Made by a program: the position numbers and the translations under genes. From IMG/VR virus record IMGVR_UViG_3300042691_036907, positions 1 to 62,819 of that record: a DNA stretch of 62,819 nt, one strand, 5' to 3'. Below, one piece after another: positions 39,277 to 62,322 of this stretch. Under the pieces are notes generated by a model. The model worked only from the letters and a program-made list of their open reading frames with translations. It was not told the origin of the DNA and made no database searches. Source of the stretch: a virus. Positions within the stretch are counted from its first letter, which is position 1. Each line of letters opens with the position of its first letter.

Positions 39277-41646
39277 ATGGAATTTAGAACAAAATTAGAC
39301 TATTCCGATAATAGACAAATAAAGCAAAGAGAAGGAACTGTTACAACATTATCAGCTACTACTATATTTGGTATGCCATTTAGTGCATTAACATCTGGCC
39401 CAAATTTATCAACAAGTGCGCAAACATCGCAATATTTTGGTGTTGTTAGCACATATTCTGGGAATAGTGCAACAACAATATTTACATGGGGTATTCCAAA
39501 TGTTTCAATTTTGGAGTCTAGTATTTCAGCTTTAACACCATCTAATAGTGGTGTGTCACAAAATATAAGTGCTGTATTTGGTTCAAGTAGTTCAACAGTT
39601 ATTGATGGTAATACAGTTAATTTAACATATAGTGGTGTATCAGCATCTAATTTATATGCAATAACAATGTCAGAACCAACACCAGGAAATTATACTGGTA
39701 CGGTTTCAACTGATTTTTTTATATTTAGTGCACAAGGTTTAGATTTTACTGGTAGAACAATATGGGTTGATAATACCGAAATATTAAGAACAAAAAAATT
39801 AATAGTTTCAAATAACCCACAAATAGGGTATGTGTTAACTTGTTCTGATGTTGAGGGTATGACTTCTTGGCAATCAGTTTCTGCGGTTACATCTGGTACA
39901 ACTTTTTGGTCAGCATCAACTGGTACTAATGCTATTGTTGTTGAATATAGTGATTCAGTTGCTAGTGGTACATTGGCACTTGCTGAAGGTTATTTAACAA
40001 CCGCTATTGGTAATTATTCACATGCTGAGGGTTTAAGTACAACAGCTAGTGGTATTACTTCACATGCTGAAGGTTATCAGACAACAGCAATAGGTGATAG
40101 TTCTCATGTTGAGGGGTGGTTAACAACAGCTATTGGTAATTCATCACACGCTGAGGGTAAAAGTACAACAGCTATTGGTCTTAGGTCACATGCTGAGGGT
40201 GGTTTAACAATTGCTAGTGGTAATCAGTCACATTCTGAGGGTGAATATACAACAGCTAATGGTGATTATTCACATTCTGAAGGAAATTATACAATAGCTA
40301 TTGGTAACGCCTCACACGCTGAAGGTTCTGGAACAACCGCATCAAGCACAGCTGCACATGCTGAAGGGGGATTAACAACTGCTATTGGGGTATCATCACA
40401 TGCTGAAGGTTCTGGTACAACGGCAATTGGATTGGCTTCACATGCTGAGGGTAGGGGTTCTGTTGTTACTGTAAATGGTTTTTATTCACATGCTGAGGGT
40501 TTAAGTACAACTGCTAAAGGTGATGCAAGCCATGTTGAGGGTTACAAGACAACATCGGATAGTACTGGCTCACACGCTGAGGGGTATCAAACGATAGCTA
40601 GCGGCACATCGGCCCATTCAGAAGGTTCGTATACATTGGCATCTAAAAGTTATGCACATGCTGAGGGTTATGGTTCAATAGCTAGTGGAAATGGTGGTTC
40701 ACATGCTGAGGGTTATGCTTCGGTGGCTAGTGGTAGTGCTTCACATGCTGAAGGTTCTGGAACAACCGCATCAAATACTGCGGCACATTCTGAAGGTTTT
40801 GCTTCAATTGCAAGTGGTCAATATTCACATGCGGGTGGAGTATCATCAACATCATCAGGCAAAGCTTCGTTTATACATTCATCTGGTTCAACAGTTAGTG
40901 GTGATAGAAGTGTTGTTATTGGTGGTTATAATATTACTGGGTCTGCTGATGATACTGTATATGTCCCAGATTTGGTTATTGATGGTTTAACATCTCAAGA
41001 CCCAATAGCTACAGATGCCAATGGTAAAATAGTTGCTGGTACATCAGATATTAGATTAAAACAAAATATCAATAATTTAACAAATGCTTTAGATGTTGTT
41101 AAAAATCTTAGGGGTGTATCATTTGAATATACTGAAGAATCAAATATGGGTTCTGGTATTAGATTTGGTTTCATCGCACAAGAAGTTCAAGATATAGTGC
41201 CAGATATGGTTAGATTAAGAGCTAAGGGTGACGGTATGTTAAATTTAAATTATACCGAAGTAATACCATGGATTGTTGAAGCCATTAAAGATTTAACAAA
41301 AACAAATATATCGAATAGTGATTTAATTTTAGAAACACAAACCATAGCTGCTGAAGATAATAATATCGAGCTTAATTATAATGGTAATAAAACGACTGCA
41401 ATTGGTGGTGGTATAACAATTATAAATGGTATTGATACTAATAATGATGCTGAATTTAAAATAAATTCAGATGGTGATTGGATAACAAATAATTTAATAA
41501 TCCCAAGTGGTTTGGTAATACCGATGTATTCACCATCATCTAGTTCAGATAAATATGGAAAAAATGGTGAAGTAACCAGGGATGAAAACTATTTATATAT
41601 TAAAACAATGGAAGGGTGGAAAAGGTCTTCACTTGAATTATTTTAA
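39277..41646 (+). CDS. Long tail fibre A: SHAEG repeats and S74 chaperone
   Basis: 789 residues. Residues 1-230 are a beta-rich adaptor. Residues ~236-525 hold about 20 copies of a 14-residue repeat ([S/A]H[A/S/V]EG-x2-T-T-A-x-G-x-x), the YadA-head-like left-handed trimeric solenoid. Residues ~590-670 contain the S74 intramolecular chaperone motif TSDIRLKQNINNLTNALDVV with GFIAQEVQDIVPDM. Unusually, about 120 further residues follow the chaperone (to KTMEGWKRSSLELF), so auto-cleavage, if it occurs, would release a domain after trimerisation. This is probably a receptor-binding or long tail fibre. First gene of the adhesion locus. Confidence 0.88.
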   Translation: MEFRTKLDYSDNRQIKQREGTVTTLSATTIFGMPFSALTSGPNLSTSAQTSQYFGVVSTYSGNSATTIFTWGIPNVSILESSISALTPSNSGVSQNISAVFGSSSSTVIDGNTVNLTYSGVSASNLYAITMSEPTPGNYTGTVSTDFFIFSAQGLDFTGRTIWVDNTEILRTKKLIVSNNPQIGYVLTCSDVEGMTSWQSVSAVTSGTTFWSASTGTNAIVVEYSDSVASGTLALAEGYLTTAIGNYSHAEGLSTTASGITSHAEGYQTTAIGDSSHVEGWLTTAIGNSSHAEGKSTTAIGLRSHAEGGLTIASGNQSHSEGEYTTANGDYSHSEGNYTIAIGNASHAEGSGTTASSTAAHAEGGLTTAIGVSSHAEGSGTTAIGLASHAEGRGSVVTVNGFYSHAEGLSTTAKGDASHVEGYKTTSDSTGSHAEGYQTIASGTSAHSEGSYTLASKSYAHAEGYGSIASGNGGSHAEGYASVASGSASHAEGSGTTASNTAAHSEGFASIASGQYSHAGGVSSTSSGKASFIHSSGSTVSGDRSVVIGGYNITGSADDTVYVPDLVIDGLTSQDPIATDANGKIVAGTSDIRLKQNINNLTNALDVVKNLRGVSFEYTEESNMGSGIRFGFIAQEVQDIVPDMVRLRAKGDGMLNLNYTEVIPWIVEAIKDLTKTNISNSDLILETQTIAAEDNNIELNYNGNKTTAIGGGITIINGIDTNNDAEFKINSDGDWITNNLIIPSGLVIPMYSPSSSSDKYGKNGEVTRDENYLYIKTMEGWKRSSLELF
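40013..40853 (+). repeat. 42-bp tandem repeats coding SHAEG units (fibre A)
   Basis: About 20 diverged copies of a 42-base unit, each with a CACATGCTGA(G/A)GG core. A few units have one or two extra codons. They are coding and in frame. Confidence 0.9.
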
Positions 41647-41662
41647 CACAAAAAACTAATTA

Positions 41663-43489
41663 ATGAATAATTACGGAAGAAAATCAATAGACTTAAGGCT
41701 TACAAATAGTGAGTACTATGATTTTTATTTAACAAATGCTGTTAGTTTATATAGGTGTTGTGATTCTACACCAACTAGTGGTGAATGTTTTGTTGTGTGG
41801 TATGATTTCAGTAATACCGAAACATTTAAGAATTTTCCAAACATTGATACAATAGAATCTTTGGTATCTTGGACTGGTGCAACAAATACTGGTTACACAT
41901 TTGATACCTTTGGTTTGACTGGATTGGATAATGGTGCATTAATTTATCAAAAAGAATTTGGTGACGATGCAAATACTAGGTTAGTTGATATATTAACTGG
42001 TACAACTTTAACAATACCAGCAAATGATGATAGATTAATATTAAATAGAGTTACTGGTTCAACTGGACAATTTATTTACCCAATTGAATTTTTTGGTGAC
42101 CCATCACCCGTTGGTGGTAGCGTTAGACTTTGTGGTGGTTTTTATCAAGGTTATTATAAGATAGATGGTAGTACTTATGAAGTTTTACCTAATAGGGTAC
42201 CTAAAGCTTGGGTTGCTGATTTTTGGTTAAATAAAAATGAAGCTTGTTCTGGTTATACTGGAACAACATTAAATGATTTATATCCAGATAATAAAGGATT
42301 TTTCTTTTATTTGGGTACTAGAGCTGAGAATAAATATTGGAATATATTTGAGGGTAATAATACTGGTTGTACATTAGATTGTACATCACCAAGTGGTTGT
42401 ACCGATTCTGTTACAAATTTTTGTACAAAATTAAAAGAAACCGAAATACAAATTACTGACCCAGAAACAGGATACCCAATATATCTTGACCCACCGCAAT
42501 TAGAGATAAAAACCATAGACAATCAGTTTTTAATATATGGTAGGGCACAAGATACTAATAAAAGATGTGGATATTGTGGTGAACCTAGAGATAGTGATGA
42601 ATATGGTAGAAAAACTGTTTGTAGTTTTACTGGTGGTAGTATAACTACTGCTGAATTTGCTAGAAAGAAAACAGATTTTAGAAATCCATTTTTAATATAT
42701 GGTAGAGCGCAAGATACCAATAAAAGATGTGGATATTGTGGTGAGCCTAGGGATAGTGATACATACGGTAGAGAAACTGTTTGTTCATATAGTGGTGATA
42801 GTGAAATTATATTAGAATTAGATAAGAATTTAGATGTATATGATAATGCCATAGGCTTTAGAATTACTGATGATGGTAGAATTGGGTATAGGGCTTTAAA
42901 GTTTACTGGCTATTGTTCTGGTGATACTTATGTTACTGGTGTTACTGTTGAAGAGCAGTATTCGATGAGCGGTATGGTTAAAGATGATGAGTGGACTAGA
43001 ATTACTATACGATTCGTTGCGGATGAAGAATACGATAAAACACAATTAAAATGTTTAGGTCCTAGGAAGGGTAAATTAATGTTTTATGTGAATTGTAAAC
43101 TTAAAGCGATATTTAAAGATGTAGACGAATTCATTGCTAGGAGACTACAAGAATATAAAGGTAAACAAGTTGGCCTACCATTTAACATTAGTGTTGGTGG
43201 TGGTAGTCAGGGATTGTTAGAGAGTATGACCTTTGATGGACAAGATTTTGAAGATTTGGGTTTATTAATCGAGAAGAATTTTGCTGGTTCATTTATAGGT
43301 CAGATATCTCAATTTAAATTTAATATATGCGACCAAAATTGGTGTGATATATCTGCTGGATGTATTGTTGATGCGGCAAGATATGGATTACCAACTTGTG
43401 ATGTGATAGATACCAACTTAATAATTGATGAGAATGGTAGATACATAATACAAGAAGATGGATACGGTATATTGTGGATAATAACTTAA
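41663..43489 (+). CDS. Structural protein with duplicated Cys-rich segment, 608 aa
   Basis: 608 residues. Beta-rich throughout (CFVVWYDFSNTETFKNFPN; KAWVADFWLNKNEACSGYTG), compatible with a lectin-like or fibre-associated virion protein. Residues ~290-380 contain two near-identical copies, 54 residues apart, of FLIYGRAQDTNKRCGYCGEP followed by RDSD-x-YGR-x-TVCS, each with a C-x2-C pair and a third Cys. This could bind metal or form disulphides. The C-terminal third has a LamG/ConA-like appearance (GKLMFYVNCKLKAIFKDVDE). It lies between two SHAEG fibres in the same direction, 16 and 18 bases from them. Confidence 0.75.
   Translation: MNNYGRKSIDLRLTNSEYYDFYLTNAVSLYRCCDSTPTSGECFVVWYDFSNTETFKNFPNIDTIESLVSWTGATNTGYTFDTFGLTGLDNGALIYQKEFGDDANTRLVDILTGTTLTIPANDDRLILNRVTGSTGQFIYPIEFFGDPSPVGGSVRLCGGFYQGYYKIDGSTYEVLPNRVPKAWVADFWLNKNEACSGYTGTTLNDLYPDNKGFFFYLGTRAENKYWNIFEGNNTGCTLDCTSPSGCTDSVTNFCTKLKETEIQITDPETGYPIYLDPPQLEIKTIDNQFLIYGRAQDTNKRCGYCGEPRDSDEYGRKTVCSFTGGSITTAEFARKKTDFRNPFLIYGRAQDTNKRCGYCGEPRDSDTYGRETVCSYSGDSEIILELDKNLDVYDNAIGFRITDDGRIGYRALKFTGYCSGDTYVTGVTVEEQYSMSGMVKDDEWTRITIRFVADEEYDKTQLKCLGPRKGKLMFYVNCKLKAIFKDVDEFIARRLQEYKGKQVGLPFNISVGGGSQGLLESMTFDGQDFEDLGLLIEKNFAGSFIGQISQFKFNICDQNWCDISAGCIVDAARYGLPTCDVIDTNLIIDENGRYIIQEDGYGILWIIT
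42527..42788 (+). repeat. Two 100-base direct repeats at 162-base spacing
   Basis: 42527-42626 and 42689-42788 are highly similar and encode the C-x2-C module of the 608-residue protein. The spacing is a multiple of three and the reading frame is kept. Confidence 0.85.
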
Positions 43490-43507: not shown

Positions 43508-45886
43508 ATGCCTAATAAAACTATTGGTCAGTTACCCTTATTACCAGGCCCATCTGGTACTAACGAATTTGCTATATGGAATGGTAGTAAGACTTTTAGA
43601 ATTAGTTTAGATACTATCAAACAATATTCTATTAGTGGAATAACCGATAATGATATATTCGTTACTGGTGGTACCTATGATACACTAACATCAACAATAA
43701 ATCTATATAGAAATGATGGTGTTATTATACCAATAACTGGTATTAGTACTGATGATATATATTTGACAGGTGGTACTTATGACGATTCATTAGTTACCTT
43801 AACTGATAATAAAGGTGGTATTGTTCAATTTAATATTGATGTTACAAGTAATAGATGGCATGTACCATCTGGAACAACATTAACTGTTAAAAATGGGTTT
43901 CAAAGTTTTATTTATGGGGATTTATATGTTGAGGGGTTATTAAAATTAGAAGATGATTCACAATTAGTTGTATTAAATGGTGATATTATATTAAGTGGTG
44001 GTTCAATTAGTGGTGCTGGTACAACATTATTAGTTGATTTACCGCAATTTGATACAAAAACGGTTAGCGGTTCATTCGACCCGAATACTGGTATTGCAAC
44101 ATTTACAAATAATAGTGGTGGCACTTTTTCAGTTAGTGGTTTTTATACTGGGTCAACTGAAATATTTGTGACTGGTGGTACGTACAACTCATCTAATGGT
44201 ATTGCCACATTCACTAATAATACTGGTGGTACATTTAATGTATCTGGATTCTTAAGTGGTTATACTGATTTTTATACAACTGGTGCAACCTTAATAGGTG
44301 CTACTGCATATTTTGATAGGACTGATACATTGTCAGCCTATACATTAGATTTATCTGGAATTGATTTTACTGGTAATACATCAGCTTCTTGTATATCTGA
44401 TTTATATTTGTCTAACTTGCATGGTTGTTCACCAATAACAATACATGATTCAATCCAATCAAATGGTTCAACTGCTAGTGGATTGTATTCATTTGCATTT
44501 GGTAATAGTACTTTAGCTAGTAATGATTATTCACATGCTGAGGGTGCTAATACAACAGCTATTGGTCAATATTCACACGCTGAGGGTCAGTTTACAACAG
44601 CACAAGGTACTCGTGCTCACGCTGAAGGTAATACAACGATTGCTGCTGGTGAAGGTTCACATGCTGAAGGGGGGTATACGCAAGCTAATGGTGATAGGTC
44701 ACACGCTGAAGGTGTTACTACAACAGCAAGTGGATTTGCATCACATGCTGAAGGTGAGGGTACCACAGCAAGTGTTGATTATTCGCATGCTGAAGGTAGA
44801 TTTTCTAAAGCATTTGGTTTAATTTCACATGCTGAAGGGTATCAAACGAGTACCACAGGTTCTTTTTCACACTCGGAAGGTCAACTTACGTTGGCTCAAG
44901 GTACTGCCTCACACGCTGAAGGTTGGCAAACAAGTGCCACTAATAATGGTTCACATTCTGAAGGTAGGGAAACGAAAGCTTTAGGTGATTCGTCACATGC
45001 TGAAGGTGCTTATACAACAGCATCAAATACAGCTTCACATGCTGAAGGTTATCAAACTAAAGCAACTGGTCAATCAGCACATGCTGAGGGTAACGGAACT
45101 AGTGCTAGTGCTGATTATTCACATGCTGAAGGTTATTTAACAACTGCATCTGGTAATTCATCACATTCGGAAGGTTATTTAACAACTGCTAAAAATAATT
45201 ATACACATGCTGGTGGTATTTCATCAGTTGCTAGTGGTTTAAATTCATTCATACATTCATCTGGTTCAACTGTAACTGGTTTAAGAAGTGTTGTGTTAGG
45301 TGGTAAGGGGTTAACTGGCCCAGCTAATGATACTGTTTATGTACCTAATTTTAATTCAAGAGGTAATTCATTATTTTCTGGTTCATCATCTGGTGTTGTA
45401 ACTATAAAAGGTTCTGGTTCAACAACCCCAATATTTACAGTTCAAGGTTCATCTGGTGAATTATTTAGTGTAACAGATAGTTTAATTGGTTCATTATTTA
45501 GTGTTAATGATATTTCTGGTTTACCAGTGTTGGAGGTATTTTCAGATAATACAATATTGATGGGTAATTATCAATCACCATCATTAAATACAACTGTTAA
45601 AAAATCATTGACTTCTGGAACTAATAATATATATTCGATACCAACTAGTGGTTATACTGGTGCATTTTTTGATTATACATTAATAAGTGCTTCTGGTGCT
45701 AGAGCTGGTAATATCATGTCAATATGGAGTGGTTCATCAGCACAATATACAGATACTTCAACAAATGATATTGGCAATACAACTGGTGTTACATTTTCAG
45801 TTGTTGTATCTGGTAGTTCTGCCGTATTACAAAGTACATCAGCAACATCTGGTTGGACATTAAAAACGATAGTAAGAAGTATATAA
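43508..45886 (+). CDS. Long tail fibre B: SHAEG repeats without S74
   Basis: 792 residues. The N-terminal adaptor (residues 1-330) includes repeated FVTGGTYNSSNGIATFTNN blocks and the module NTSASCISDLYLSNLHGCSP followed by ITIHDSIQ, which is shared almost unchanged with fibre C at 58863. About 17 SHAEG 14-mers follow (residues ~340-575). The C-terminal part (FIHSSGSTVTGLRSVVLGGK onwards) lacks the S74 chaperone and is replaced by a beta-rich tip (SGWTLKTIVRSI end). It probably forms a trimeric fibre whose folding needs another chaperone. It is followed after one base by the LamG genes. Confidence 0.86.
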   Translation: MPNKTIGQLPLLPGPSGTNEFAIWNGSKTFRISLDTIKQYSISGITDNDIFVTGGTYDTLTSTINLYRNDGVIIPITGISTDDIYLTGGTYDDSLVTLTDNKGGIVQFNIDVTSNRWHVPSGTTLTVKNGFQSFIYGDLYVEGLLKLEDDSQLVVLNGDIILSGGSISGAGTTLLVDLPQFDTKTVSGSFDPNTGIATFTNNSGGTFSVSGFYTGSTEIFVTGGTYNSSNGIATFTNNTGGTFNVSGFLSGYTDFYTTGATLIGATAYFDRTDTLSAYTLDLSGIDFTGNTSASCISDLYLSNLHGCSPITIHDSIQSNGSTASGLYSFAFGNSTLASNDYSHAEGANTTAIGQYSHAEGQFTTAQGTRAHAEGNTTIAAGEGSHAEGGYTQANGDRSHAEGVTTTASGFASHAEGEGTTASVDYSHAEGRFSKAFGLISHAEGYQTSTTGSFSHSEGQLTLAQGTASHAEGWQTSATNNGSHSEGRETKALGDSSHAEGAYTTASNTASHAEGYQTKATGQSAHAEGNGTSASADYSHAEGYLTTASGNSSHSEGYLTTAKNNYTHAGGISSVASGLNSFIHSSGSTVTGLRSVVLGGKGLTGPANDTVYVPNFNSRGNSLFSGSSSGVVTIKGSGSTTPIFTVQGSSGELFSVTDSLIGSLFSVNDISGLPVLEVFSDNTILMGNYQSPSLNTTVKKSLTSGTNNIYSIPTSGYTGAFFDYTLISASGARAGNIMSIWSGSSAQYTDTSTNDIGNTTGVTFSVVVSGSSAVLQSTSATSGWTLKTIVRSI
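44525..45220 (+). repeat. 42-bp tandem repeats coding SHAEG units (fibre B)
   Basis: About 17 diverged copies of the same 42-base unit as in fibres A and C. Confidence 0.88.
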
Positions 45887-45887
45887 T

Positions 45888-46577
45888 ATGAGTTTTAATT
45901 ATTCACCTAAAATAGTAAATGATGGTTTAATTTTATATTTAGATGCAGCAAATCCAAAATCATTGGTAAGTGGTACTACTGTTTGGTATGATATCTCTAA
46001 ATTATCAAAAACTGCAACTATGGTAAATGGTCCAACATTTACAACTGAAAAAGGTGGTGGGTTAGTTTTTGATGGTGTAAATGATTATGTGACATTAGGA
46101 ACAGACCAAGATTATTATTTTAATTTAACAAAACCATATACAATTTCAATATGGTTTAAATCTAATTCATTATCAACAATGGGGTTAGTCACTAGATATA
46201 ATTCTGGTATTAGGGGGCATTATTTTTTAAAATTTTTACTTAATGGTGCTATAATGTATAATAGGGAGGTCTCACCATTTAATTTATTTTCAAACGGAAT
46301 ATTATCAATAGGGGTTATAAACAATGTGGTTATTTCTTACGATGGGTCATACCAAAAAATATATTTAAATGGTGTTTTTGATAGGCAACAATTATCAGGT
46401 AATATTGTTCAAAACCAATCAAATATTAATTTATTTATAGGTGCTTCTCAATCATTTGGAAACCCTAATGAATTTTTCAATGGAACCATTTATAATGTTA
46501 GTATTTATAAAAAAGGATTGTCACAACAGGAGATTACACAAAATTATAATGCGTTAAAAACTAGATTTGGATTATGA
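45888..46577 (+). CDS. LamG-like adhesin module 1
   Basis: 229 residues. The N-terminal IVNDGLILYLDAANPKSLVS and TTVWYDISKLSKTATMVNGP, then GLVFDGVNDYVTLGTD, YTISIWFKSNSLST and YQKIYLNGVFDR are the strand pattern of a laminin-G/concanavalin-like domain (LamG_3). These domains bind sugars or surface proteins. The protein ends with QNYNALKTRFGL, a C-terminus shared by four genes and a relic here. The next gene overlaps by 4 bases. It has no signal peptide and is expected to be part of the tail tip. Confidence 0.82.
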   Translation: MSFNYSPKIVNDGLILYLDAANPKSLVSGTTVWYDISKLSKTATMVNGPTFTTEKGGGLVFDGVNDYVTLGTDQDYYFNLTKPYTISIWFKSNSLSTMGLVTRYNSGIRGHYFLKFLLNGAIMYNREVSPFNLFSNGILSIGVINNVVISYDGSYQKIYLNGVFDRQQLSGNIVQNQSNINLFIGASQSFGNPNEFFNGTIYNVSIYKKGLSQQEITQNYNALKTRFGL

Positions 46578-47323
46578 GTGGAAATGTTGCCCCTAAAATA
46601 GTAACGAAAGGGTTAGTACTTTGTTTAGACGGTGCTAATGTATATTCATACCCAAAAACAGGTACAGCTTGGTCTGATTTAACAACAAATAGAAATAATT
46701 CTACTTTAATAAATGGACCCACTTATGATTCATCAAATGGTGGTAGTTTATTATTTGATGGTATAAATGATTTTGCAAATATAACTTATAATTCAACTTT
46801 AAGTGTAGCTAATGCACATACATTAGAATCTTGGTTTTATGCCACAGGTAGGGGTACAAATTCAATATTTGATGGTTCTGGACATTTGATGAGAGCTGGT
46901 CAAGTTGAGGATAGCCAATTCCAATTGAACTATATTTATGATTATGGTGCAATAGGTTATTTATGGTTTAGGTCATTTAATGGAAATCCATATCCATCTG
47001 CTGGTTCATTCACTTTTCTTGGTTCACCAAATTATGTGGCAATGCCTAATAAATGGAATATGGCAACTGTGGCTAGAAATGGTTCTACAGTAAAAATATA
47101 TGTAAATGGTGTTTTAGTATCAACCTATACAGGGCAAACAATATCATCCAACCCATCTTGGATTACCTATTTAGGTGGTTCTTTAACTTTGGGTAGAACT
47201 ACTGGTAACCCATATATTAACTATAAAGGTAAAATTGCGGTTAGTCGAATATATAATAGAGCATTATCCGATTCTGAAGTTTTACAAAATTTTAATGCGT
47301 TAAAAGGTAGATTTGGTTTATAA
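46574..47323 (+). CDS. LamG-like adhesin module 2
   Basis: 249 residues, paralogous to module 1: IVTKGLVLCLDGANVYSYPK, TAWSDLTTNRNNSTLINGP, SLLFDGINDFANI, HTLESWFYATGRGTNSIF, VKIYVNGVLVSTYTG and the end QNFNALKGRFGL. The sugar-binding loops between strands differ strongly from its neighbours while the frame and the two ends are kept, as expected for exchangeable ligand-binding proteins. It overlaps module 1 by 4 bases. Confidence 0.83.
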   Translation: MSGNVAPKIVTKGLVLCLDGANVYSYPKTGTAWSDLTTNRNNSTLINGPTYDSSNGGSLLFDGINDFANITYNSTLSVANAHTLESWFYATGRGTNSIFDGSGHLMRAGQVEDSQFQLNYIYDYGAIGYLWFRSFNGNPYPSAGSFTFLGSPNYVAMPNKWNMATVARNGSTVKIYVNGVLVSTYTGQTISSNPSWITYLGGSLTLGRTTGNPYINYKGKIAVSRIYNRALSDSEVLQNFNALKGRFGL

Positions 47324-47338
47324 AAAATATTTATAATT

Positions 47339-47608
47339 ATGGCAACAGAAATATATCAAAACAGAAAATTCATGGTATTCAATGTATCTGAATTAAATTT
47401 AATTGATTTTTCACAGGTACTAGAGACATCTGAAGAAACCGTTAGGAAATCATTGGATGAAACAAAAACATTTGTAAAATGGGATGGTGATATACCATCT
47501 TGTGTTGATTCATTAACAACTAAAGAGGGGCCTTATACTTATGATGAAATAATTGAAATATTAAGTGGTACTGATTGGTTAAGTACTGAAAAAATTGAAA
47601 TGTCGTGA
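47339..47608 (+). CDS. Small acidic unknown protein, 89 aa
   Basis: 89 residues (MATEIYQNRKFMVFNVSELN onward), acidic, predicted mixed alpha/beta. It is unrecognised. It lies between two LamG genes, and its stop codon overlaps the GTG start of the next one (sequence TCGTGAG), so translation is coupled. Small genes of this size occur behind several adhesins of this locus; an assembly helper is one possibility. Confidence 0.68.
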   Translation: MATEIYQNRKFMVFNVSELNLIDFSQVLETSEETVRKSLDETKTFVKWDGDIPSCVDSLTTKEGPYTYDEIIEILSGTDWLSTEKIEMS

Positions 47609-48387
47609 GTACAGCAGAAGGTGGGGCTAACATTGTTCAAAGTGGATTGGTATTTTGTTTTGACCCAGCGAATAATAAATCATTTGTTGTTGGTTCAACA
47701 ACTGCTAATGATTTAAAAAACAGTACAACTTTAACATTTAAAAATAAAATATATCTTGCTGGTGGTACTGGTGACATAGTTACTATTATTTCACCAACAT
47801 TCGATAACAATAATGGTGGTAGTATTTTTTTTAACCCATCAAGTATTTTAAGTGGTGATGCTGTATATTTACCAAATGGTGATACATCAACCAATATAAA
47901 TACTTATGTAACATTATCTGTTTGGTTTAAAAAAACTGTATCACCATCTTGGGTTGAGGTGCCAGCTGGTAAAGGTTTTAATACACCTACCCCATCAAGT
48001 CAGGCATATTCTTTTTATATATTAAATAATTCTATATATGCTAGAGTCACAACTAATACTGTAAATGGTAATAGTGATATTGGAACGCCATATAGTTTAA
48101 ATATGTGGAATAATGCTGTATTGACATATGATGGTACCACAATTAGGTTATATTTAAATGGGGTTTTAAAAACATCTACACCAAAAACAGGGCCAATGAT
48201 GAACACATCAAACCCTTTCAATATAGGTTGTCAGAATAATGGTGGTTATTTCCCAGCTAGTGCACCATCTAAAACTTCAGAATATTTTAAAGGTTATATA
48301 TCAAATGTTATGATATATAATAAAGCATTGACAGCTGATGAAGTTTTACAAAATTATAATGCATTAAAAAGTAGGTTTGGGTTATGA
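47605..48387 (+). CDS. LamG-like adhesin module 3 (GTG start)
   Basis: 260 residues. GTG at 47605 is chosen because no suitable ATG exists and it overlaps the previous TGA. IVQSGLVFCFDPANNKSFVV, YVTLSVWFKKTVSPSWVEVP, LTYDGTTIRLYLNGVLKTST and the end QNYNALKSRFGL show the same LamG plan as modules 1 and 2 with longer loops. It overlaps module 4 by 4 bases. Confidence 0.82.
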   Translation: MSTAEGGANIVQSGLVFCFDPANNKSFVVGSTTANDLKNSTTLTFKNKIYLAGGTGDIVTIISPTFDNNNGGSIFFNPSSILSGDAVYLPNGDTSTNINTYVTLSVWFKKTVSPSWVEVPAGKGFNTPTPSSQAYSFYILNNSIYARVTTNTVNGNSDIGTPYSLNMWNNAVLTYDGTTIRLYLNGVLKTSTPKTGPMMNTSNPFNIGCQNNGGYFPASAPSKTSEYFKGYISNVMIYNKALTADEVLQNYNALKSRFGL

Positions 48388-49127: not shown

Positions 49128-49172
49128 TTTTTTAAAAATTATAATGCATTAAAATTAAGATTTAATTACTAA
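49128..49172 (+). pseudogene. Relic of a deleted LamG module (3' end only)
   Basis: In one frame the bases read FFKNYNALKLRFNY and stop, matching the conserved LamG ending (QNYNALKSRFGL and stop) of the genes before it; the DNA around ATAATGCATTAAAA is also the same. Nothing upstream of it remains. This is most easily explained as the leftover 3' end of a fifth module after a deletion or replacement. Confidence 0.7.
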
Positions 49173-49218: not shown

Positions 49219-50574
49219 ATGGCTGGTGAATTTAATATTAAAAATGGATTTAAATCCAACGGTGATAGTACTGTAAGTGGTAAATTAACCACTCAAAAAT
49301 TAACAATAACTTCTGGAGCAACCAATGGTTATGTATTAACTTCTGATTCTAGTGGTAATGCTGTTTGGGGCGCACCTTCATCTTCATCAGGAGTATTTGG
49401 TATAGCAAACACATCGGGAGTTTATACTTACTATGCTACACTTACTATAGCTATGTCGGCTGCGACAAGCGGTCAGACTATAGAGATGTTTGCAGATGTT
49501 ACTGAAAGTGGCGCTACTACAGTTACATTAAAAAATAATGTGACTATCAATGGTAATGGTCATACATACACACATACAAGTACAACTGGGAATACATTTA
49601 ATTTTGTCGCTGGAGCTACAGTATATATAAACAATCTTATTATCAATAGAACAGTTACTACACCTACAGGTGCTGCTGTATTTTATTTTGACAATAGCTT
49701 TGGCAATCCAATGAGATTAAGGTGTTCTGCTGTATATGTTAATTACACATTTACAACAAGCGTAGGTGCTACACCTGTTGTAAATGCTGATGTGTTAACT
49801 CAGTACATTGTAGAAGGTCTTTATGCTACTGCAAATGGAAGTGGGGCAATGTTTAGTCAAACTAATCAGCCTATAACCATTATAAACTGCTTTGCTAGAA
49901 ATACTGGAACTGGTAACGGATATGCATTTGGTTCTGCTGGTGGTACAATAGATGATTCTTATGCGAGTGTTGTATCAGGAACTGGTATTGCTTTAACTGC
50001 TGGTTCATCAGCAAGAAATTGTAACTCAATTGCTACAACTGGAGTGGGAATAAGTGGTGCTGGTAATGCATATCAATGTTATGCCTTTTCAAATACAAAT
50101 TATGCTTATAATAGTGTCACTGCATATAATTGTGTTGCACAAACAACAAGTGGAACTGCTTTTTATAATTGTATAATTAGAAACTGCTCAGGAACTTCTA
50201 CAACAGGTGCAGCTTTAGTATCTTTCTTTAGTCCCGCATATGCTTATAATTCATCTTTGCAGTCTACAGGTGGGGTTACAATTCCATCATCACCTTGGTC
50301 AATACTATTGGAGAATTGTTCCATTACAAATGAATGGAATAATGCAAGTGGTCACGCAGTCACTTTTGGAAGCTCAGGTGCTGCGATTACAAATGAGATT
50401 ACTAACTGTAAGATAACAGTATCAAATGCGAGTGCAAATTGTTTGAATGTCGCATCTGCTATAAATGCGAAATATGCAAACAATGTATTCAAAGGAGCAA
50501 CTACTCCAGTTAATGCTAATATAACACAGACTATAATTAATACACAAGATAATCAAGGAAACATCTTAATGTAA
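49219..50574 (+). CDS. Parallel beta-helix tail-tip protein, 451 aa
   Basis: 451 residues. An N-terminal adaptor (SNGDSTVSGKLTTQKLTI, then TNGYVLTSDSSGNAVWGAP) is typical of fibre-attachment segments. It is followed by beta-helix coils (TVTLKNNVTINGNGHTYTHT; ITIINCFARNTGTG; NCSITNEW) rich in Asn, Thr and Cys. It is probably a spike-like adhesin or glycan-binding protein; no glycosidase residues can be assigned. Codon use has more GGA than the neighbouring GGT-rich genes, and it carries a purine-rich AGGGAAAAG leader, unusual here. This suggests recent acquisition together with the next three genes. Confidence 0.76.
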   Translation: MAGEFNIKNGFKSNGDSTVSGKLTTQKLTITSGATNGYVLTSDSSGNAVWGAPSSSSGVFGIANTSGVYTYYATLTIAMSAATSGQTIEMFADVTESGATTVTLKNNVTINGNGHTYTHTSTTGNTFNFVAGATVYINNLIINRTVTTPTGAAVFYFDNSFGNPMRLRCSAVYVNYTFTTSVGATPVVNADVLTQYIVEGLYATANGSGAMFSQTNQPITIINCFARNTGTGNGYAFGSAGGTIDDSYASVVSGTGIALTAGSSARNCNSIATTGVGISGAGNAYQCYAFSNTNYAYNSVTAYNCVAQTTSGTAFYNCIIRNCSGTSTTGAALVSFFSPAYAYNSSLQSTGGVTIPSSPWSILLENCSITNEWNNASGHAVTFGSSGAAITNEITNCKITVSNASANCLNVASAINAKYANNVFKGATTPVNANITQTIINTQDNQGNILM

Positions 50575-50888: not shown

Positions 50889-50889
50889 C

Positions 50890-52083: not shown

Positions 52084-52377
52084 ATGGAAAGTTATAACAC
52101 ATTACACATATTTGGGTACGGAGAGACTCAAGTAATTACAGATACAGAAAATAAGAAGGTAGCAACTGATTCAATTGTCGGAGTGCAGTTAGTAGTAGAT
52201 GACCTATACTCTAAGAAACCATCTGACAATCCAGCAACATCTAATTATAGAGTGATAAGCATTTTTAATGATATGTTTGCAGACTATTCGGATGAAGAGG
52301 GCAATAGCTTTAGAGTTGACTATTCAGAACTGAATGCGGCACTTATTGATGCGGTAGTATTAGAGGTATTAAAATAA
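52084..52377 (+). CDS. Small unknown protein, 97 aa
   Basis: 97 residues (MESYNTLHIFGYGETQVITD), acidic, with a C-terminal helix (NAALIDAVVLEVLK). It is unrecognised and not clearly similar to the other small genes at the residue level, though size and position match them. It lies directly behind an adhesin. Confidence 0.68.
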   Translation: MESYNTLHIFGYGETQVITDTENKKVATDSIVGVQLVVDDLYSKKPSDNPATSNYRVISIFNDMFADYSDEEGNSFRVDYSELNAALIDAVVLEVLK

Positions 52378-52383: not shown

Positions 52384-52980
52384 ATGGCGGTAAGTAATTA
52401 TAGTGGTTTAACAATAACACAACCACAAGTTGGGATACAAATAACTAAGGTAACAGATTCACAATCTGATTGGTCTTCAGTTGCTAATTCTACATATTTC
52501 TATGATAAAACTGATAAGTTAGTGCATTATAAAAATGGTAGTGGTGTTGTTTTAGAAATGTTTGATTCATCTAATGCACTTTATTTGCTTGAAGCGTATG
52601 CTAGTGTGACTTACACCTTACCAGGTTCATTTACTGAAGATATTTGTAGATATAGTATTGTAAATAATACAGTAAATGTATCAAGCAGTTGGTTCAATAC
52701 TTCAAATTACACATTTACACCACAAAAATCTGGTTATTGGGAAATAACCGCATCATACGATGTTTATAGAAATAGTGAAGCAAGTATGTTAATCGAGAAA
52801 AACAATTCAATGGTGGCGGCTGCTGGTTCTTTTAACGCAGTAGCTCAACAGATAACAAAAATTGTCTATCTAAATGGTTCAACTGATTTCATAAACATTT
52901 ACAATGTTGGTGGGGCTGAACTGCAAAGAGCGCAATTCCAATCGAGGTCTTGGTTCCAAGCAAGGTGGGTAGGTGAATAA
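52384..52980 (+). CDS. Adaptor plus C1q-like domain adhesin
   Basis: 198 residues. Residues 1-65 are the shared adaptor (SGLTITQPQVGIQITKVTDS, then SDWSSVANSTYFYDKTDKLV). From about residue 75 the sequence (YTFTPQKSGYWEITASYDVY, then MLIEKNNSMVAAAGSF and FINIYNVGGAELQRAQFQSR) follows the C1q/TNF jelly-roll, a trimeric binding head. The end WFQARWVGE resembles the closing strand of that fold. This is a complete small adhesin. Its adaptor DNA is nearly identical to that of the next gene. Confidence 0.76.
   Translation: MAVSNYSGLTITQPQVGIQITKVTDSQSDWSSVANSTYFYDKTDKLVHYKNGSGVVLEMFDSSNALYLLEAYASVTYTLPGSFTEDICRYSIVNNTVNVSSSWFNTSNYTFTPQKSGYWEITASYDVYRNSEASMLIEKNNSMVAAAGSFNAVAQQITKIVYLNGSTDFINIYNVGGAELQRAQFQSRSWFQARWVGE
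52396..52461 (+). repeat. Adaptor-coding DNA repeat, copy 1
   Basis: 66 bases, matching 53008-53073 with one mismatch (56 of them consecutive). It encodes the start of the common adaptor. A recombination site between the two genes is likely. Confidence 0.88.
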
Positions 52981-52995
52981 AAAAAATAATATAAA

Positions 52996-53457
52996 ATGGC
53001 AGTAACGAATTATAGTGGTTTAACAATAACACAACCACAAGTTGGGATACAAATAACTAAGGTGACAGATTCATCTTCTGATTTTTCATCTGTTTCAAAT
53101 TCAACATATTTTTATAATAAATCCGATAAATTAGCTAGATTTAAAGATTCAGCTGGTAATGTTATTGGTATTTTTGATTCACCATTTTCATCAGCTAGTA
53201 ATAGTGCAAATATATATTTCTCAGCATCAACAGTATTTGGTACTTTTTCTTCACCATTATCTTCTAATTTGACAGATACTTTAACAAATTCAAAATTAGG
53301 GGTTGTTCAAAAGATATATCATAATAGTGGTTCTGCACCATCAGTTCCAGCTGGTTGGGTATTATTAGGTAGTACCACATATCAAATTAGCACATTAAAT
53401 ATAATCTATGCTGAATGGTCAGAAGGTACTAGGGTTGAATATTGGATAGTTAGATAA
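52996..53457 (+). CDS. Adaptor plus unknown C-terminal tip
   Basis: 153 residues. The adaptor (residues 1-65: SGLTITQPQVGIQITKVTDS, STYFYNKSDKLARF) is shared with the previous gene; the C-terminal ~85 residues (SSPLSSNLTDTLTNSKLGVV, then QISTLNIIYAEWSEGTRVEY) are a different fold that I do not recognise, with an all-beta look. It stops with TAATG overlapping the start of the next gene. Confidence 0.74.
   Translation: MAVTNYSGLTITQPQVGIQITKVTDSSSDFSSVSNSTYFYNKSDKLARFKDSAGNVIGIFDSPFSSASNSANIYFSASTVFGTFSSPLSSNLTDTLTNSKLGVVQKIYHNSGSAPSVPAGWVLLGSTTYQISTLNIIYAEWSEGTRVEYWIVR
53008..53073 (+). repeat. Adaptor-coding DNA repeat, copy 2
   Basis: See 52396-52461. Confidence 0.88.
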
Positions 53458-54173
53458 TGAAACAATATAAAGCAATATTATCAAATATACCACCAGCACC
53501 AATATTGTGTTATGATGTAACCAATGTTAATTCATATCCTGGTAGTGGTACACTTGTTACTGATATTGTTAAAAATAGTAATGCAACATTAATTAATAGT
53601 CCAGTTTATTCAGCATTTACATCTGGTTCACTATTTTTTGATGGTGTAAATGAGTATTTGATGACATCAACAGATTTAAGTTCAAAATTTCCTGGGTCAT
53701 CACCAAACAAGTCTGAATTAACATCAATTTTTATGTGGGTATACCCAATGGATAATGGTGTTATATTAACTGAACAAGGTAACACTTCATTAAATTCTGG
53801 TTGGCATGAATCAGAAATAGAAATAGTTTCTGGAACAATGAAGTTTGGTATGTGGAATGGTACTGGTATAACATCTGTATCATCTTCAATTGCAACCCCA
53901 TTTAATAATTGGTATTATGTTGGTTTGGTATATGATGGTTCAACTTTGACTGGTTATATTGATGGTGAGATTGCTGGAACGGTAACATTTAATAGAGCAG
54001 CACCGTATAATAATGGTTCAAATTTACATTATGCTATAGCTGCTACAGACCCAACTAGTATGGGTGATGGTTCATATGCTAAAATGTATTTAAGTAGATT
54101 TGAAGTATATAATAGTGCGCTAACTCAGAGGCAAATTAAATATAATTATAATATGACTCTTAATATATTTTAA
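53457..54173 (+). CDS. LamG-like adhesin module 5
   Basis: 238 residues. APILCYDVTNVNSYPGSGTL, SLFFDGVNEYLMTSTD, ELTSIFMWVYPMDNGVILTE and LTGYIDGEIAGTV give the LamG layout again, but the C-terminus (KYNYNMTLNIF) has drifted from the QNYNALK ending. The ATG overlaps the previous stop by one base. It is separated from the other LamG genes by the foreign-looking block, so it may be the older copy. Confidence 0.78.
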   Translation: MKQYKAILSNIPPAPILCYDVTNVNSYPGSGTLVTDIVKNSNATLINSPVYSAFTSGSLFFDGVNEYLMTSTDLSSKFPGSSPNKSELTSIFMWVYPMDNGVILTEQGNTSLNSGWHESEIEIVSGTMKFGMWNGTGITSVSSSIATPFNNWYYVGLVYDGSTLTGYIDGEIAGTVTFNRAAPYNNGSNLHYAIAATDPTSMGDGSYAKMYLSRFEVYNSALTQRQIKYNYNMTLNIF

Positions 54174-54228: not shown

Positions 54229-54235
54229 AAAGAAA

Positions 54236-58465: not shown

Positions 58466-58482
58466 AAAAAATATAAAATATA

Positions 58483-58815
58483 ATGGCAGCACCTAGATTT
58501 TTATTAAATTCTTGTGATGGTTCACAAGACCCAATAATAGCAATATTAAACATATCAGAACCAGATTTTGATGGAATAAAAGAGGGTAGAATTACAAGCG
58601 TTAACATAGATGGTTTAGGTTGTTATACCTTTGTTGATACGTCTGAAGAACCTGGAACAGAGTATAACTTTTTAGGTCTTTATAGTGATTGTAGTTCTTG
58701 TTCATTTAGTAGTTTGGTTGATGAATTTAAATCAAACCCAAATGTGACTCAAAAATTTGAGGATACAAGGAGTGAAATACAAACAATAATACAAGATAAA
58801 CTAGCTGGTGGTTAA
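58483..58815 (+). CDS. Small Cys-containing unknown protein, 110 aa
   Basis: 110 residues (MAAPRFLLNSCDGSQDPIIA), with a Cys-rich middle (GLYSDCSSCSFSSLV) and a C-terminal helix (NPNVTQKFEDTRSEIQTIIQ). It is unrecognised. It follows the giant solenoid gene by 17 bases and precedes fibre C, again in the pattern of a small gene after a large adhesin. Confidence 0.7.
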   Translation: MAAPRFLLNSCDGSQDPIIAILNISEPDFDGIKEGRITSVNIDGLGCYTFVDTSEEPGTEYNFLGLYSDCSSCSFSSLVDEFKSNPNVTQKFEDTRSEIQTIIQDKLAGG

Positions 58816-58862: not shown

Positions 58863-61800
58863 ATGCCAAATAATAAATTAATTTTAAGAAGTATAATTAG
58901 CCCATGGACATTACCAGTTTCAGATTTAACAACTGGTAGTGTTTTATCTTGGGCTGATGTTGATAATAATTTTATTTACTTAAAAGGATATGATATTTAT
59001 TCTGGTTCAACATCTGGAACAACATTGATATTAGATAGGATAAATGGTGATACTTTACAATTGGATTTATCCCCATTAGTTGGTCCAATTAATGATTGTT
59101 TAACTGGAACCACTTATAACCCATCTACTGGTGTTATAACTTTTACAAATACAACTGGTGGTACTACTACATTGTCTGGGTTTTATACAGGTTCAACTGA
59201 AATATTTGTAACTGGTGGTACGTATAACCCATCTAACGGTATTGCTACATTTACTAATAATAGTGGTGGTACATTTAGTGTATCTGGATTTTTAACGGGT
59301 TATACTGATTTTTATACAACTGGTTCTACATTAATCGGTGATACAATATATTTTGATAGAACGGATAGTTTATCCGCTTATAGTGTTAATTTATCTGGTA
59401 TTACAGGTGGTGGTAGTTTTACGGGTAATACATCTGCATCTTGTATATCTGATTTATGGGTTAGTAATTTACATGGTTGCTCGCCAATAACGGTTCATGA
59501 TTCAATTCAAACAACTGGTTCAACCGCAAGTGGTACATTATCATTTGCATTTGGTTCTGGTAATACAGCTAGTGGTCAATATTCACATGCTGAAGGATAT
59601 CAAACAATTGCAATTGGTGCTCGTGCACATTCTGAAGGATTTCAAACAATAGCTAGTGGTGCGCAAGCGCACGCTGAAGGTGTGTTAACAACCGCAAAAG
59701 GTAATCATTCACATGCTGAGGGTTATGGTTCAATAACTAGATTATATGCACTAGCTGGACACGCTGAAGGTATTGAAACTGAAGTTATGGGTAACGGTGG
59801 GCATGCTGAAGGTTTTAGAACTACAACAACTCTCAACGGTTCTTATTCACATGCTGAAGGGGTGTATTCAACGGCTGCTGGTAATGGTTCTCATGCTGAA
59901 GGTGGTTATAATGCTTTACCATTTTTTTATATAAAAGGTGGTACTGCAAGTGGTAATAGTTCGCATGCTGAAGGTCAGCAAACAAGTTCAATTGGTACTG
60001 CATCGCATGCTGAGGGTTCTAATACTTTGGCGATAGGTGACTATTCACATGCTGAAGGTTCTGGTAGCACCGCCACTAATACAGCAGCGCATGCTGAGGG
60101 TAGGGGCACAACAGCTAGTGGTAGTACTTCACATGCTGAAGGTTATAAAACAACAGCGATAGGTTGGGCATCACATGCTGAAGGTGGATATTTTGATGGG
60201 GCGTTTACATATTATTCTGGTGGTACTGCAATAGGTGCTGGCTCACACGCTGAGGGTGTTACTACAACAGCACAAGGTGATTATTCACATGCCGAAGGTG
60301 CTGGTTCTTTATCTATTGGTAATGCTTCACATGCTGAAGGTCAATCAAAAGCAATTGGTACAGCATCACACTCTGAAGGGGCTGGTACAACAGCTGTTGG
60401 TCCATATTCACATGGTGAGGGTTCTAACTCAATTGCTAGTGGTGATTCATCTCATGCTGAGGGTAGTCAAACAACAGCCATTGGTTTGGCATCACATTCT
60501 GAAGGTGTTTTTACAAAAAGTATTGGTATTTATTCACATGCTGAAGGTTCTACCACAATAGCTAGTGGTATATCGTCACATGCCGAAGGTATTACTACAA
60601 CGGCAAGAGGTGATTATTCACATGCTGAAGGTCAATCTACAACTGCTAGGGGTCAATCTTCACATGCTGAAGGTAGGCAAACATTAGCACAAGGTGAATC
60701 ATCACATGCTGAAGGTAGGCTTTCAACAGCTATTGGGGCTAGGTCGCATGCTGAAGGTTCTGCTACAGCAAGCGGTTATACATCACATGCTGAAGGTGAT
60801 GCTACATTAGCACAAGGTGATTATTCTCATTCCGAAGGTTATAATACAACAGCTGGTGGACAATATTCACACGCTGAGGGTCAACAAGCAACAGCAATTG
60901 GAATTGCATCACATGCTGAAGGTCAATCTACAATAGCTAGTGGTCAATCTTCACATGCTGAAGGTCAAGTTACAAGAGCGATGGGTCAATTCTCACACGC
61001 TGAAGGTTCTAATACAAAAGCTATTGGTATTTATTCACATGCTGAAGGTAGACAAACAACAGCTAGTGGTTCATCATCACATGCTGAGGGTATTACTACA
61101 ACAGCAAGGGGTGATTATTCACACGCTGAAGGTTCTAGTACAAAAGCTATTGGTATTTATTCACATTCTGAGGGTAGGTCCACCGTTTCAAGTGGTCAAT
61201 CTTCACATGCTGAGGGTCAATCTACAACCTCTATTGGTGATTATTCACATGCTGAAGGTCAATTTACAACAGTAATAGGGACTCATTCACATGTTGAGGG
61301 TTATTTTACAACAGTTTTGGGTCCTTATTCACATGGTGAGGGTTCCAATACCACAGTTTTAAATAGTCAATCACATGCTGAAGGTACTTTTACTGTGGCA
61401 AGTGGTTTTACATCACACGCTGAAGGTGGTTTTACCACTTCGATGGGTGATTATTCACACTCTGAAGGTAGACAAACAACGGCCAAAGGTGATTATTCAC
61501 ATTCTGGGGGTTTTAGCACTAAGGCTATCGGTATTTATTCATTTGTTCACGGTTTTGGTTCTGTAGCAAATGCTAATAATACAATTGTATTTGGAGCAAA
61601 TATTACAGGTTCAACTGCTGACAACACATATGTTGATGGTTTAAATATTAAAACTGTTGGTGCTGGTCCAGGTGTTACTGATATAGGTGTTGATGCTAGT
61701 GGATTTGTTGTTAATCAAGCTTCTGATGAAAGATTAAAAGAAAATATAAATACAATTGAGAATGCATTAGATAAGGTTTCAAATCTTAGAGGTGTTACTT

Positions 61801-62045
61801 ATAATTGGAAAGATAGAGAAGCTGGTGGTGATGGTTTAAGATATGGATTTATAGCACAAGAAGTTAATGTTGTGGTTCCAGAATTAACATTCACAAATGG
61901 TGATAATGGATATATGGGTGTACAATATAAAGAAGTTACATCATTATTGGTTGAATCAATAAAAGAACAACAAAAAATAATTAACGAATTAAAAGAAGAG
62001 CTAGTTACTCTTAGAAATAAAATAACTATATTAGAAAATAAATAA
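58863..62045 (+). CDS. Long tail fibre C: about 45 SHAEG repeats and S74 chaperone
   Basis: 1060 residues. The adaptor (residues 1-235) contains the NTSASCISDLWVSNLHGCSP module shared with fibre B. About 45 SHAEG 14-mers follow (residues ~240-890). Repeats 8 and 14 carry ~10-residue insertions, GGYNALPFFYIKGGT and GGYFDGAFTYYSGGT, aromatic-rich loops that would project from the shaft. The C-terminus is an S74 chaperone (ASDERLKENINTIENALDKV; GFIAQEVNVVVPEL), ending in a coiled coil (IKEQQKIINELKEELVTLRN) as in classical S74 fibres, which self-cleave at the Ser of SDER. Probable receptor-binding fibre. Confidence 0.9.
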   Translation: MPNNKLILRSIISPWTLPVSDLTTGSVLSWADVDNNFIYLKGYDIYSGSTSGTTLILDRINGDTLQLDLSPLVGPINDCLTGTTYNPSTGVITFTNTTGGTTTLSGFYTGSTEIFVTGGTYNPSNGIATFTNNSGGTFSVSGFLTGYTDFYTTGSTLIGDTIYFDRTDSLSAYSVNLSGITGGGSFTGNTSASCISDLWVSNLHGCSPITVHDSIQTTGSTASGTLSFAFGSGNTASGQYSHAEGYQTIAIGARAHSEGFQTIASGAQAHAEGVLTTAKGNHSHAEGYGSITRLYALAGHAEGIETEVMGNGGHAEGFRTTTTLNGSYSHAEGVYSTAAGNGSHAEGGYNALPFFYIKGGTASGNSSHAEGQQTSSIGTASHAEGSNTLAIGDYSHAEGSGSTATNTAAHAEGRGTTASGSTSHAEGYKTTAIGWASHAEGGYFDGAFTYYSGGTAIGAGSHAEGVTTTAQGDYSHAEGAGSLSIGNASHAEGQSKAIGTASHSEGAGTTAVGPYSHGEGSNSIASGDSSHAEGSQTTAIGLASHSEGVFTKSIGIYSHAEGSTTIASGISSHAEGITTTARGDYSHAEGQSTTARGQSSHAEGRQTLAQGESSHAEGRLSTAIGARSHAEGSATASGYTSHAEGDATLAQGDYSHSEGYNTTAGGQYSHAEGQQATAIGIASHAEGQSTIASGQSSHAEGQVTRAMGQFSHAEGSNTKAIGIYSHAEGRQTTASGSSSHAEGITTTARGDYSHAEGSSTKAIGIYSHSEGRSTVSSGQSSHAEGQSTTSIGDYSHAEGQFTTVIGTHSHVEGYFTTVLGPYSHGEGSNTTVLNSQSHAEGTFTVASGFTSHAEGGFTTSMGDYSHSEGRQTTAKGDYSHSGGFSTKAIGIYSFVHGFGSVANANNTIVFGANITGSTADNTYVDGLNIKTVGAGPGVTDIGVDASGFVVNQASDERLKENINTIENALDKVSNLRGVTYNWKDREAGGDGLRYGFIAQEVNVVVPELTFTNGDNGYMGVQYKEVTSLLVESIKEQQKIINELKEELVTLRNKITILENK
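59578..61520 (+). repeat. 42-bp tandem repeats coding SHAEG units (fibre C)
   Basis: About 45 copies, most exactly 42 bases, with two longer units (near 59903 and 60186). Many share TATTCACATGCTGAAGGT-like cores and are good substrates for slippage or recombination with fibres A and B. Confidence 0.92.
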
Positions 62046-62061
62046 AAAAAAAACAAAAATT

Positions 62062-62322
62062 ATGGCAAAGTTAACAGCTGAAGAAGTTGCTGCGGCAAAA
62101 GTGATTAGAGCAACATTTGAAAATGGAAAATGGATTATTTTAGTTTCAGATTCATCTGATTTTATCTACAGAGTAGATTTCGAAGGTGGAGAATCTGATG
62201 ATAATGCAACATTATTATCTAAAACACATGAAGCATTATTGGAAACTGAAAAGTATGAACCAGTTGTAATCCCTCAACCAGTGGTTAGAGAAGATTTAAC
62301 AGGTTTAAATCCAGCAAACTAA
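62062..62322 (+). CDS. Small acidic unknown protein, 86 aa
   Basis: 86 residues (MAKLTAEEVAAAKVIRATFE), starting with a short helix and then a beta-rich acidic part (IILVSDSSDFIYRVDFEGGE), ending VREDLTGLNPAN. It is unrecognised. It lies 16 bases behind fibre C and may be an assembly helper for it. A 9-base inverted repeat (TTCGAAAGT at 62331 and ACTTTCGAA at 62381) lies just after its stop. Confidence 0.7.
   Translation: MAKLTAEEVAAAKVIRATFENGKWIILVSDSSDFIYRVDFEGGESDDNATLLSKTHEALLETEKYEPVVIPQPVVREDLTGLNPAN

What the first reader, a model, noticed from the sequence alone, without database searches (positions are those of the whole stretch)
39277..62322. Twenty-three-kilobase reservoir of adhesion modules
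Three SHAEG fibres, five LamG-like proteins, a beta-helix spike, three adaptor-tip proteins, a solenoid and small accessory genes follow each other on one strand. Most phages of this type have two to four fibre genes. The layout suggests a library of binding domains that could be swapped by recombination to shift host range.
Basis: partly seen in the sequence, partly recalled or inferred. Interest (0 to 1): 0.76.

Follow-up and report, generated by a model that had tools for sequence, protein, structure and literature searches.

The report
Giant-phage swappable lectin adhesin cassette
A giant bacterial virus carries a long block of cell-binding genes; related viruses have visibly traded the lectin genes in it one at a time, next to a conserved fibre end that probably holds them and a small uncharacterised partner gene.

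Summary
In detail: 39277-62322 holds 19 same-strand ORFs (98.8% coding), including three SHAEG fibres, five Pfam LamG proteins, three proteins sharing an adaptor, a 9-residue-period solenoid and small genes. The reading is partly right. The window is a fragment of a T4-like giant phage. The block fills a slot behind a conserved 608-aa anchor gene that holds 0.45-12.6 kb in relatives and over 19 kb here. Modules are not invariant: LamG 48384 is 96% identical to one in a phage whose capsid protein is only 61% identical, and there the block lies elsewhere in the genome. Two contigs 100% identical over 34.7 kb differ in one LamG core (at a contig end). Main new result: a fibre ending in a 163-aa 'carrier' domain is followed directly by LamG in 38 of 41 independent cases, usually with a conserved ~89-aa gene that no family library knows. 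LamG ends are conserved, cores hypervariable. I infer that LamG proteins are exchangeable, gp38-like tips mounted on the carrier. Display on the virion and host-range effect are untested; nothing indicates a silent library. Adhesin exchange is known; this operon appears undescribed.

The parts
39277..41646 (+). Fibre 1, 789 aa: SHAEG/YadA-head shaft with S74 intramolecular chaperone; conserved first gene of the block
   Evidence: Pfam S74 and YadA_head; homologues beside the anchor in relatives
41663..43489 (+). Anchor gene, 608 aa, present in 14 of 21 fetched relatives; possibly a large divergent LamG-like protein
   Evidence: three weak colinear profile matches to LamG
43508..45886 (+). Carrier fibre, 792 aa: SHAEG shaft, no S74; aa 630-792 are the carrier domain
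   Evidence: Carrier domain directly followed by LamG in 38 of 41 cases found with the domain alone
45395..45883 (+). Carrier domain (C-terminal 163 aa of 43508)
45888..46577 (+). LamG 1
   Evidence: PF13385 E 4e-17
46574..47323 (+). LamG 2; 84% identical to a LamG of distant phage G047
   Evidence: PF13385
47339..47608 (+). LamG partner protein, 89 aa, new family; next to LamG in 60 of 62 distinct occurrences
   Evidence: AF2 model pLDDT 84
47605..48387 (+). LamG 3; replaced by a different allele in G047
   Evidence: PF13385
48384..49115 (+). LamG 4; 96% identical (90.5% DNA over 957 bp) to a LamG of G047, whose MCP is 61% identical
49128..49172 (+). Vestigial LamG 3' end (FFKNYNALKLRFNY*), scar of a lost LamG gene
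   Evidence: 31/38 match, none as good in 2000 random windows or 2000 shuffles; also in L226
49219..50574 (+). Putative beta-helix spike, 451 aa
   Evidence: No Pfam/PHROG hit; 21 viral homologues; fold not tested
50574..50888 (+). Small accessory gene, 104 aa
   Evidence: ORF only
50860..52071 (+). Adaptor plus YadA-head beta-roll, 403 aa from a TTG; ATG at 50893 is the likelier start
   Evidence: PF05658 E 3e-11; adaptor repeat D8
52084..52377 (+). Small accessory gene, 97 aa
   Evidence: ORF only
52384..52980 (+). Adaptor plus small tip, 198 aa; tip shared with distant phage G020 from just after the adaptor
   Evidence: 71% aa; 84.7% DNA over 406 bp
52996..53457 (+). Adaptor plus short tip, 153 aa; tip 84% identical to the end of a 459-aa gene in G047
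53457..54173 (+). LamG 5; 68% identical in G047, only an 83-aa C-terminal piece in G022
   Evidence: PF13385
54236..58465 (+). Asn-rich 9-residue-repeat solenoid, 1409 aa, mosaic
   Evidence: Period 9; segment identities
58483..58815 (+). Small accessory gene, 110 aa, also behind the solenoid in G022
58863..62045 (+). Fibre 3, 1060 aa: long SHAEG shaft with S74 chaperone
   Evidence: Pfam
62062..62322 (+). Small accessory gene, 86 aa, also in G021 and G023 at the same place

Best explanation
The block is a receptor-binding cassette of a T4-like giant phage, lying between a fixed anchor gene (41663) and, judging by relatives, the DNA polymerase region. Its LamG part is a plug-in adhesin system. 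Fibre 43508 ends in a conserved carrier domain; the LamG proteins encoded directly behind it are the interchangeable tips or side-binders it carries; the ~89-aa partner protein (47339) helps load, fold or cap them. LamG ends (N-terminal strap of ~60 aa, C-terminal NYNALKxRFG motif) stay conserved to keep fit with carrier and partner, and the core between them varies to bind different cell-surface glycans. Because ends, carrier and partner gene are conserved, homologous recombination between co-infecting phages can replace, insert or delete one LamG gene or core. Shown: the architecture, the conserved-end/variable-core pattern, and exchange, gain, loss and relocation of modules. Inferred: physical docking on the carrier, the role of the small protein, sugar binding, and a host-range effect.
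For: Carrier domain directly followed by LamG in 38 of 41 distinct cases, found with the domain alone. Partner gene adjacent to LamG in 60 of 62. LamG ends conserved, core not, over 211 nonredundant LamG. Close relatives swap LamG: carrier 96-98%, partner 83-91%, first LamG 47-50% identical; A,B versus C,A order, and clean loss of one LamG. G051 and G063 100% identical over 34.7 kb but with different LamG 3 cores. Window LamG 96% identical in a phage with MCP 61%; colinear block at another genome position. 88% of shared tracts start within 100 bp of a LamG 3' end against 20% at random. LamG scar.
Against: No direct evidence of docking or of virion location. Carrier similarity correlates only weakly with the LamG1 strap (rho 0.25). 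PHROG matches label related LamG proteins 'head and packaging' virion proteins, so they could decorate the head. Conserved ends could also reflect selection alone and mimic recombination borders. The cleanest swap (G051/G063) lies at a contig end, so misassembly is not excluded. No strain-level relative of the window itself was available.
Confidence: 0.6

Rival explanations
1. Ordinary phage mosaicism: a conventional set of fibres and spikes, several used at once for different receptors, with adhesin genes exchanged at the usual rate. There is no dedicated carrier/partner system.
For: Exchange is not confined to LamG: the tip of 52384, the solenoid and the SHAEG fibres are mosaic too. Such exchange is widely described (PMC3909814, PMC7468147).
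Against: The near-obligate order carrier-LamG and the conserved partner beside otherwise unrelated LamG genes are more than random shuffling would give.
Confidence: 0.28
2. The LamG proteins are head or sheath decorations rather than fibre tips, binding glycans of the environment or host surface nonspecifically.
For: LamG proteins match PHROG 8510, 'head and packaging, virion structural protein'.
Against: They are encoded directly behind fibre genes in 38 of 41 cases within a fibre block.
Confidence: 0.1
3. A diversity-generating retroelement or an invertible switch creates the variation.
For: Such systems target phage receptor-binding proteins; reverse transcriptase occurs in one relative (G029) and resolvase in one (G028).
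Against: No reverse transcriptase, resolvase or integrase above cut-off in the window or the other relatives searched; only two weak inverted repeats in the block; variation is wholesale replacement of cores, not point changes. The window record is a fragment, so absence elsewhere in its genome is not shown.
Confidence: 0.01
4. A silent within-genome library: most modules are stored and copied into an expressed position.
For: Many diverged modules lie in one genome and share end sequences.
Against: All are full ORFs on one strand with small gaps; the exchange partners found lie in other phages.
Confidence: 0.01

Closest known systems
T2-type long tail fibre tip: gp37 fibre with gp38 adhesin (T2, PP01, S16; PMC12892980)
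   Same: Adhesin gene directly behind the fibre gene; constant N-terminal part that must match the fibre, hypervariable receptor-binding part; works like this by analogy
   Different: LamG (ConA-like) fold by Pfam instead of polyglycine-helix gp38; two to five or more adhesins per fibre gene; an extra conserved ~89-aa partner; a different fibre end
Metaviromic islands and flexible phage genes (PMC3909814, PMC7468147)
   Same: Host-recognition genes, lectin-like among them, are the variable spots in otherwise near-identical phages
   Different: There no carrier or partner architecture is described; here exchange unit and borders are resolved
Laminin G3 lectin domains of jumbo phages (PMC7824862)
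   Same: Same domain in virion/fibre-associated proteins of jumbo phages
   Different: Survey only; no arrays, carrier domain, partner gene or exchange described in the passages read
Alteromonas phage tail fibre with cognate chaperone shared between distant families (PMC10579305, abstract only)
   Same: Fibre and small chaperone move between distant phages as a module
   Different: Different proteins; here the partner gene stays while the lectins change

Membership tests
Pfam Laminin_G_3 (PF13385) | Score above curated cut-off | tested here: met
   Five proteins at 50-77 bits against a cut-off of 27.6
T4-like (gp23 capsid) giant phage | gp23-type major capsid protein | tested here: met
   phrog_138 E 1e-51; tblastn to T4-like capsids
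T4-like (gp23 capsid) giant phage | Genome over 200 kb | tested here: inconclusive
   The window is a fragment; relatives with 55-73% identical capsid proteins lie on contigs of 345-412 kb
T2-type gp38 tip adhesin | gp38 fold with polyglycine-II sandwich | not tested
   No structure of the LamG proteins was made; their Pfam domain is LamG, and no protein of the block matched gp38 in the family searches. Not claimed as a member
T2-type gp38 tip adhesin | Adhesin gene directly downstream of the distal fibre gene, constant end plus hypervariable part | tested here: met
   shared logic, not homology
T2-type gp38 tip adhesin | Protein sits at the fibre tip and binds the receptor | not testable with these tools
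   Needs virion structure and binding assays
Diversity-generating retroelement target | Reverse transcriptase in the same genome | tested here: inconclusive
   None in the window or 16 of 17 relatives; the window is a fragment
Invertible tail-fibre cassette | Recombinase gene and inverted repeats | tested here: not met
   No resolvase or integrase in the window, only weak inverted repeats
Metaviromic island | Under-recruitment of metagenomic reads across the region | not testable with these tools
   No reads available; assembled contigs show the matching pattern

The most novel reading that the evidence does not exclude
The carrier domain, the LamG proteins and the ~89-aa partner form a dedicated plug-in receptor-binding system of giant phages: a constant socket, exchangeable lectin tips with standardised ends, and a loading factor, in which the conserved flanks act as recombination handles shared by phages whose capsid proteins are only about 60% identical.
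Probability: 0.45. Interest if true: 0.78.

Novelty: new variant of a known kind. Interest (0 to 1): 0.62.

Why it matters
It defines the exchange unit, the borders and the likely socket of a fast-changing adhesin system in a group of uncultured giant phages, so adhesin swapping can be followed in metagenomes and LamG-carrier docking tested with recombinant proteins. The partner family and the carrier domain are also sequence markers for finding receptor-binding lectin arrays in unannotated phages.

Tried and rejected
Recent tandem duplication as the source of the five LamG genes: rejected, 25-33% identity. DGR or inversion: not supported. Solved-structure sequence searches for anchor, partner and tip 52384: no hit. 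Partner fold: no PDB match at E 0.001, only uncharacterised viral proteins in BFVD. Anchor structure: model too poor to use (pLDDT 46). Partner in bacterial genomes: two pattern matches, no confirmed relative. The first adjacency count for the carrier was biased because loci had been chosen by the partner gene; it was repeated with the carrier alone. Docking test by co-variation of carrier and LamG1 strap: weak. Absence of modules in G001 and G005 is uninformative because those contigs end there. Trojet 2011 on gp38 adhesins is not held.

Full report
WHAT THE WINDOW IS. The record is a linear 62.8-kb viral contig. Its first gene is a gp23-type major capsid protein (MCP), 55-83% identical to those of the fetched relatives, some of which lie on contigs of 345-412 kb. 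It is therefore most likely a fragment of a T4-like giant phage. The host is unknown; the nearest named capsid relatives include Flavobacterium phages at 39% identity over half the protein.

THE OBSERVATION. All named genes exist at the given coordinates on one strand, 98.8% coding. Pfam confirms five LamG proteins and two S74/YadA-head fibres; a third SHAEG fibre lacks S74. The five LamG share only 25-33% identity, so they were assembled from different sources or diverged long ago. The three adaptor-tip proteins share their N-terminus (D8). The solenoid has a 9-residue period. The beta-helix label is not confirmed by any search. The 608-aa gene 41663 is present in 14 of 21 fetched relatives and gives three weak but colinear profile matches to the start, middle and end of LamG.

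THE SLOT. In relatives the pair 39277-41663 is followed by a variable stretch and then by a gene of about 1100-1240 aa and three opposite-strand genes; in G021, where this was tested, these are DNA polymerase and helicase; elsewhere I assign them by position and size. The variable stretch is 0.45 kb in G024, 1.5 kb in G012 and about 6-12.6 kb in nine others; here it runs over 19 kb and is cut by the end of the contig. A second variable stretch follows the helicase region; in G024 and G026 the LamG genes and partner lie there, in the window and in G022 in the first. So the set is not fixed and its parts change place.

HORIZONTAL EXCHANGE OF WINDOW MODULES. G020 is distant (core median 42%, MCP 55%), but its tip protein matches 52384 at 71%, at DNA level 84.7% from just after the adaptor. 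The solenoid is a mosaic: aa 101-600 like G019/G020 (62-89%), aa 777-1409 like G022 (73%). The strongest case is G047: MCP 61% and gene 35205 51% identical, yet one of its LamG is 96% identical to 48384 (90.5% DNA over 957 bp) and another 84% identical to 46574. The stretch 43838-58471 is colinear with G047 96372-108415, interrupted by replaced segments: the core of LamG 47605, and a 3.9-kb piece running from most of 49219 to the adaptor of 52996. In G047 a single 459-aa gene has the N-terminus of 49219 and the C-terminus of 52996. In G047 the block lies about 10 kb before MCP; here it lies about 42 kb after it.

THE CARRIER-LAMG-PARTNER ARCHITECTURE. The last 163 aa of 43508 were used as the only query. 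Of 42 distinct full-length C-terminal copies, 41 have a next gene; in 38 it is LamG, in 37 of these with a gap of at most 10 bp, and 31 have the partner gene within seven genes. The shafts before the domain vary; only 3 of 41 have a SHAEG-type shaft. The partner family (at least 82 viral homologues) touches LamG in 60 of 62 distinct cases, has invariant residues F24, V27, T34, P53, Y66 and W80, a fairly confident small alpha/beta model (pLDDT 84, pTM 0.71), no PDB fold match, only uncharacterised viral matches, no PHROG family, no Pfam family above its cut-off and no confirmed relative in bacterial genomes.

HOW LAMG GENES CHANGE. Across 211 nonredundant LamG, the first 60 residues and the last ~28 are conserved and the ~160 between are mostly not. 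Loci L312/L313/L316, L319 and L321, with carriers 96-98% and partners 83-91% identical, have first LamG proteins of only 47-50% identity. L349 and L352 (about 91% flanks) carry LamG A,B versus C,A; L346 and L354 differ by exactly one LamG gene. G051 and G063 are 100% identical over 34.7 kb of the stretches compared and differ in the core of LamG 3, with identical sequence resuming at its 3' end; this lies at a contig end, so a misassembly cannot be excluded. Over 85 array loci, 88% of shared DNA tracts begin within 100 bp of a LamG 3' end, against 20% at random. The window itself carries a vestigial LamG end at 49128-49172, also present in L226.

MECHANISM. Shown: modular architecture, constant ends with variable core, and replacement, gain, loss and relocation of modules. 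Inferred: LamG proteins are tips docked on the carrier through their constant ends, the partner is an assembly factor, the variable cores bind glycans, and homologous recombination in co-infected cells is the exchange route. First-position LamG straps resemble each other (0.57) more than first resemble second (0.47), which fits a docking role, but co-variation with the carrier is weak. Retroelement and inversion mechanisms are not supported.

NOVELTY. Exchange of host-recognition genes between near-identical phages (PMC3909814, PMC7468147), tip adhesins at the end of the gp37 fibre (T2-type gp38, PMC12892980) and LamG domains in jumbo phages (PMC7824862) are known. Searches in the held library found no description of the carrier domain, the partner family or their operon; papers outside that library were not searched. 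I rate it a new variant of a known kind.

Noticed in passing
16857-29013: A second hypervariable stretch on the minus strand: most genes here (aminotransferase-like, nucleotide-sugar epimerase and others) are missing in relatives, while flanking genes 15819 and 29741 are conserved. It may be a surface or glycan modification island.
   Followed up: partly
42521-42824: Tandem in-frame duplication (81% DNA) of a Cys-rich CxxC segment inside the anchor gene, with a similar pair in several relatives.
   Followed up: no
32557-33258: Homing-endonuclease-like gene on the opposite strand inside a conserved run; G022 has two relatives at a similar place.
   Followed up: no
54236-58465: The Asn-rich solenoid has no hit in PHROGs, Pfam or the phage collection and contains two copies of an inserted WTQGGNGGGF domain (repeats D17, D19).
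   Followed up: partly
L043 (G029) contig 90586-91269 and 239193-239897; L035 (G028) contig 202606-203028 and 349511-349894: Two reverse transcriptases in one giant relative and two resolvases in another.
   Followed up: no
41663-43489, 3' end: The C-terminal tail of the anchor protein differs even in the closest relative (L085/G001), whose tail instead resembles that of L089/G026; another possible swap point.
   Followed up: no
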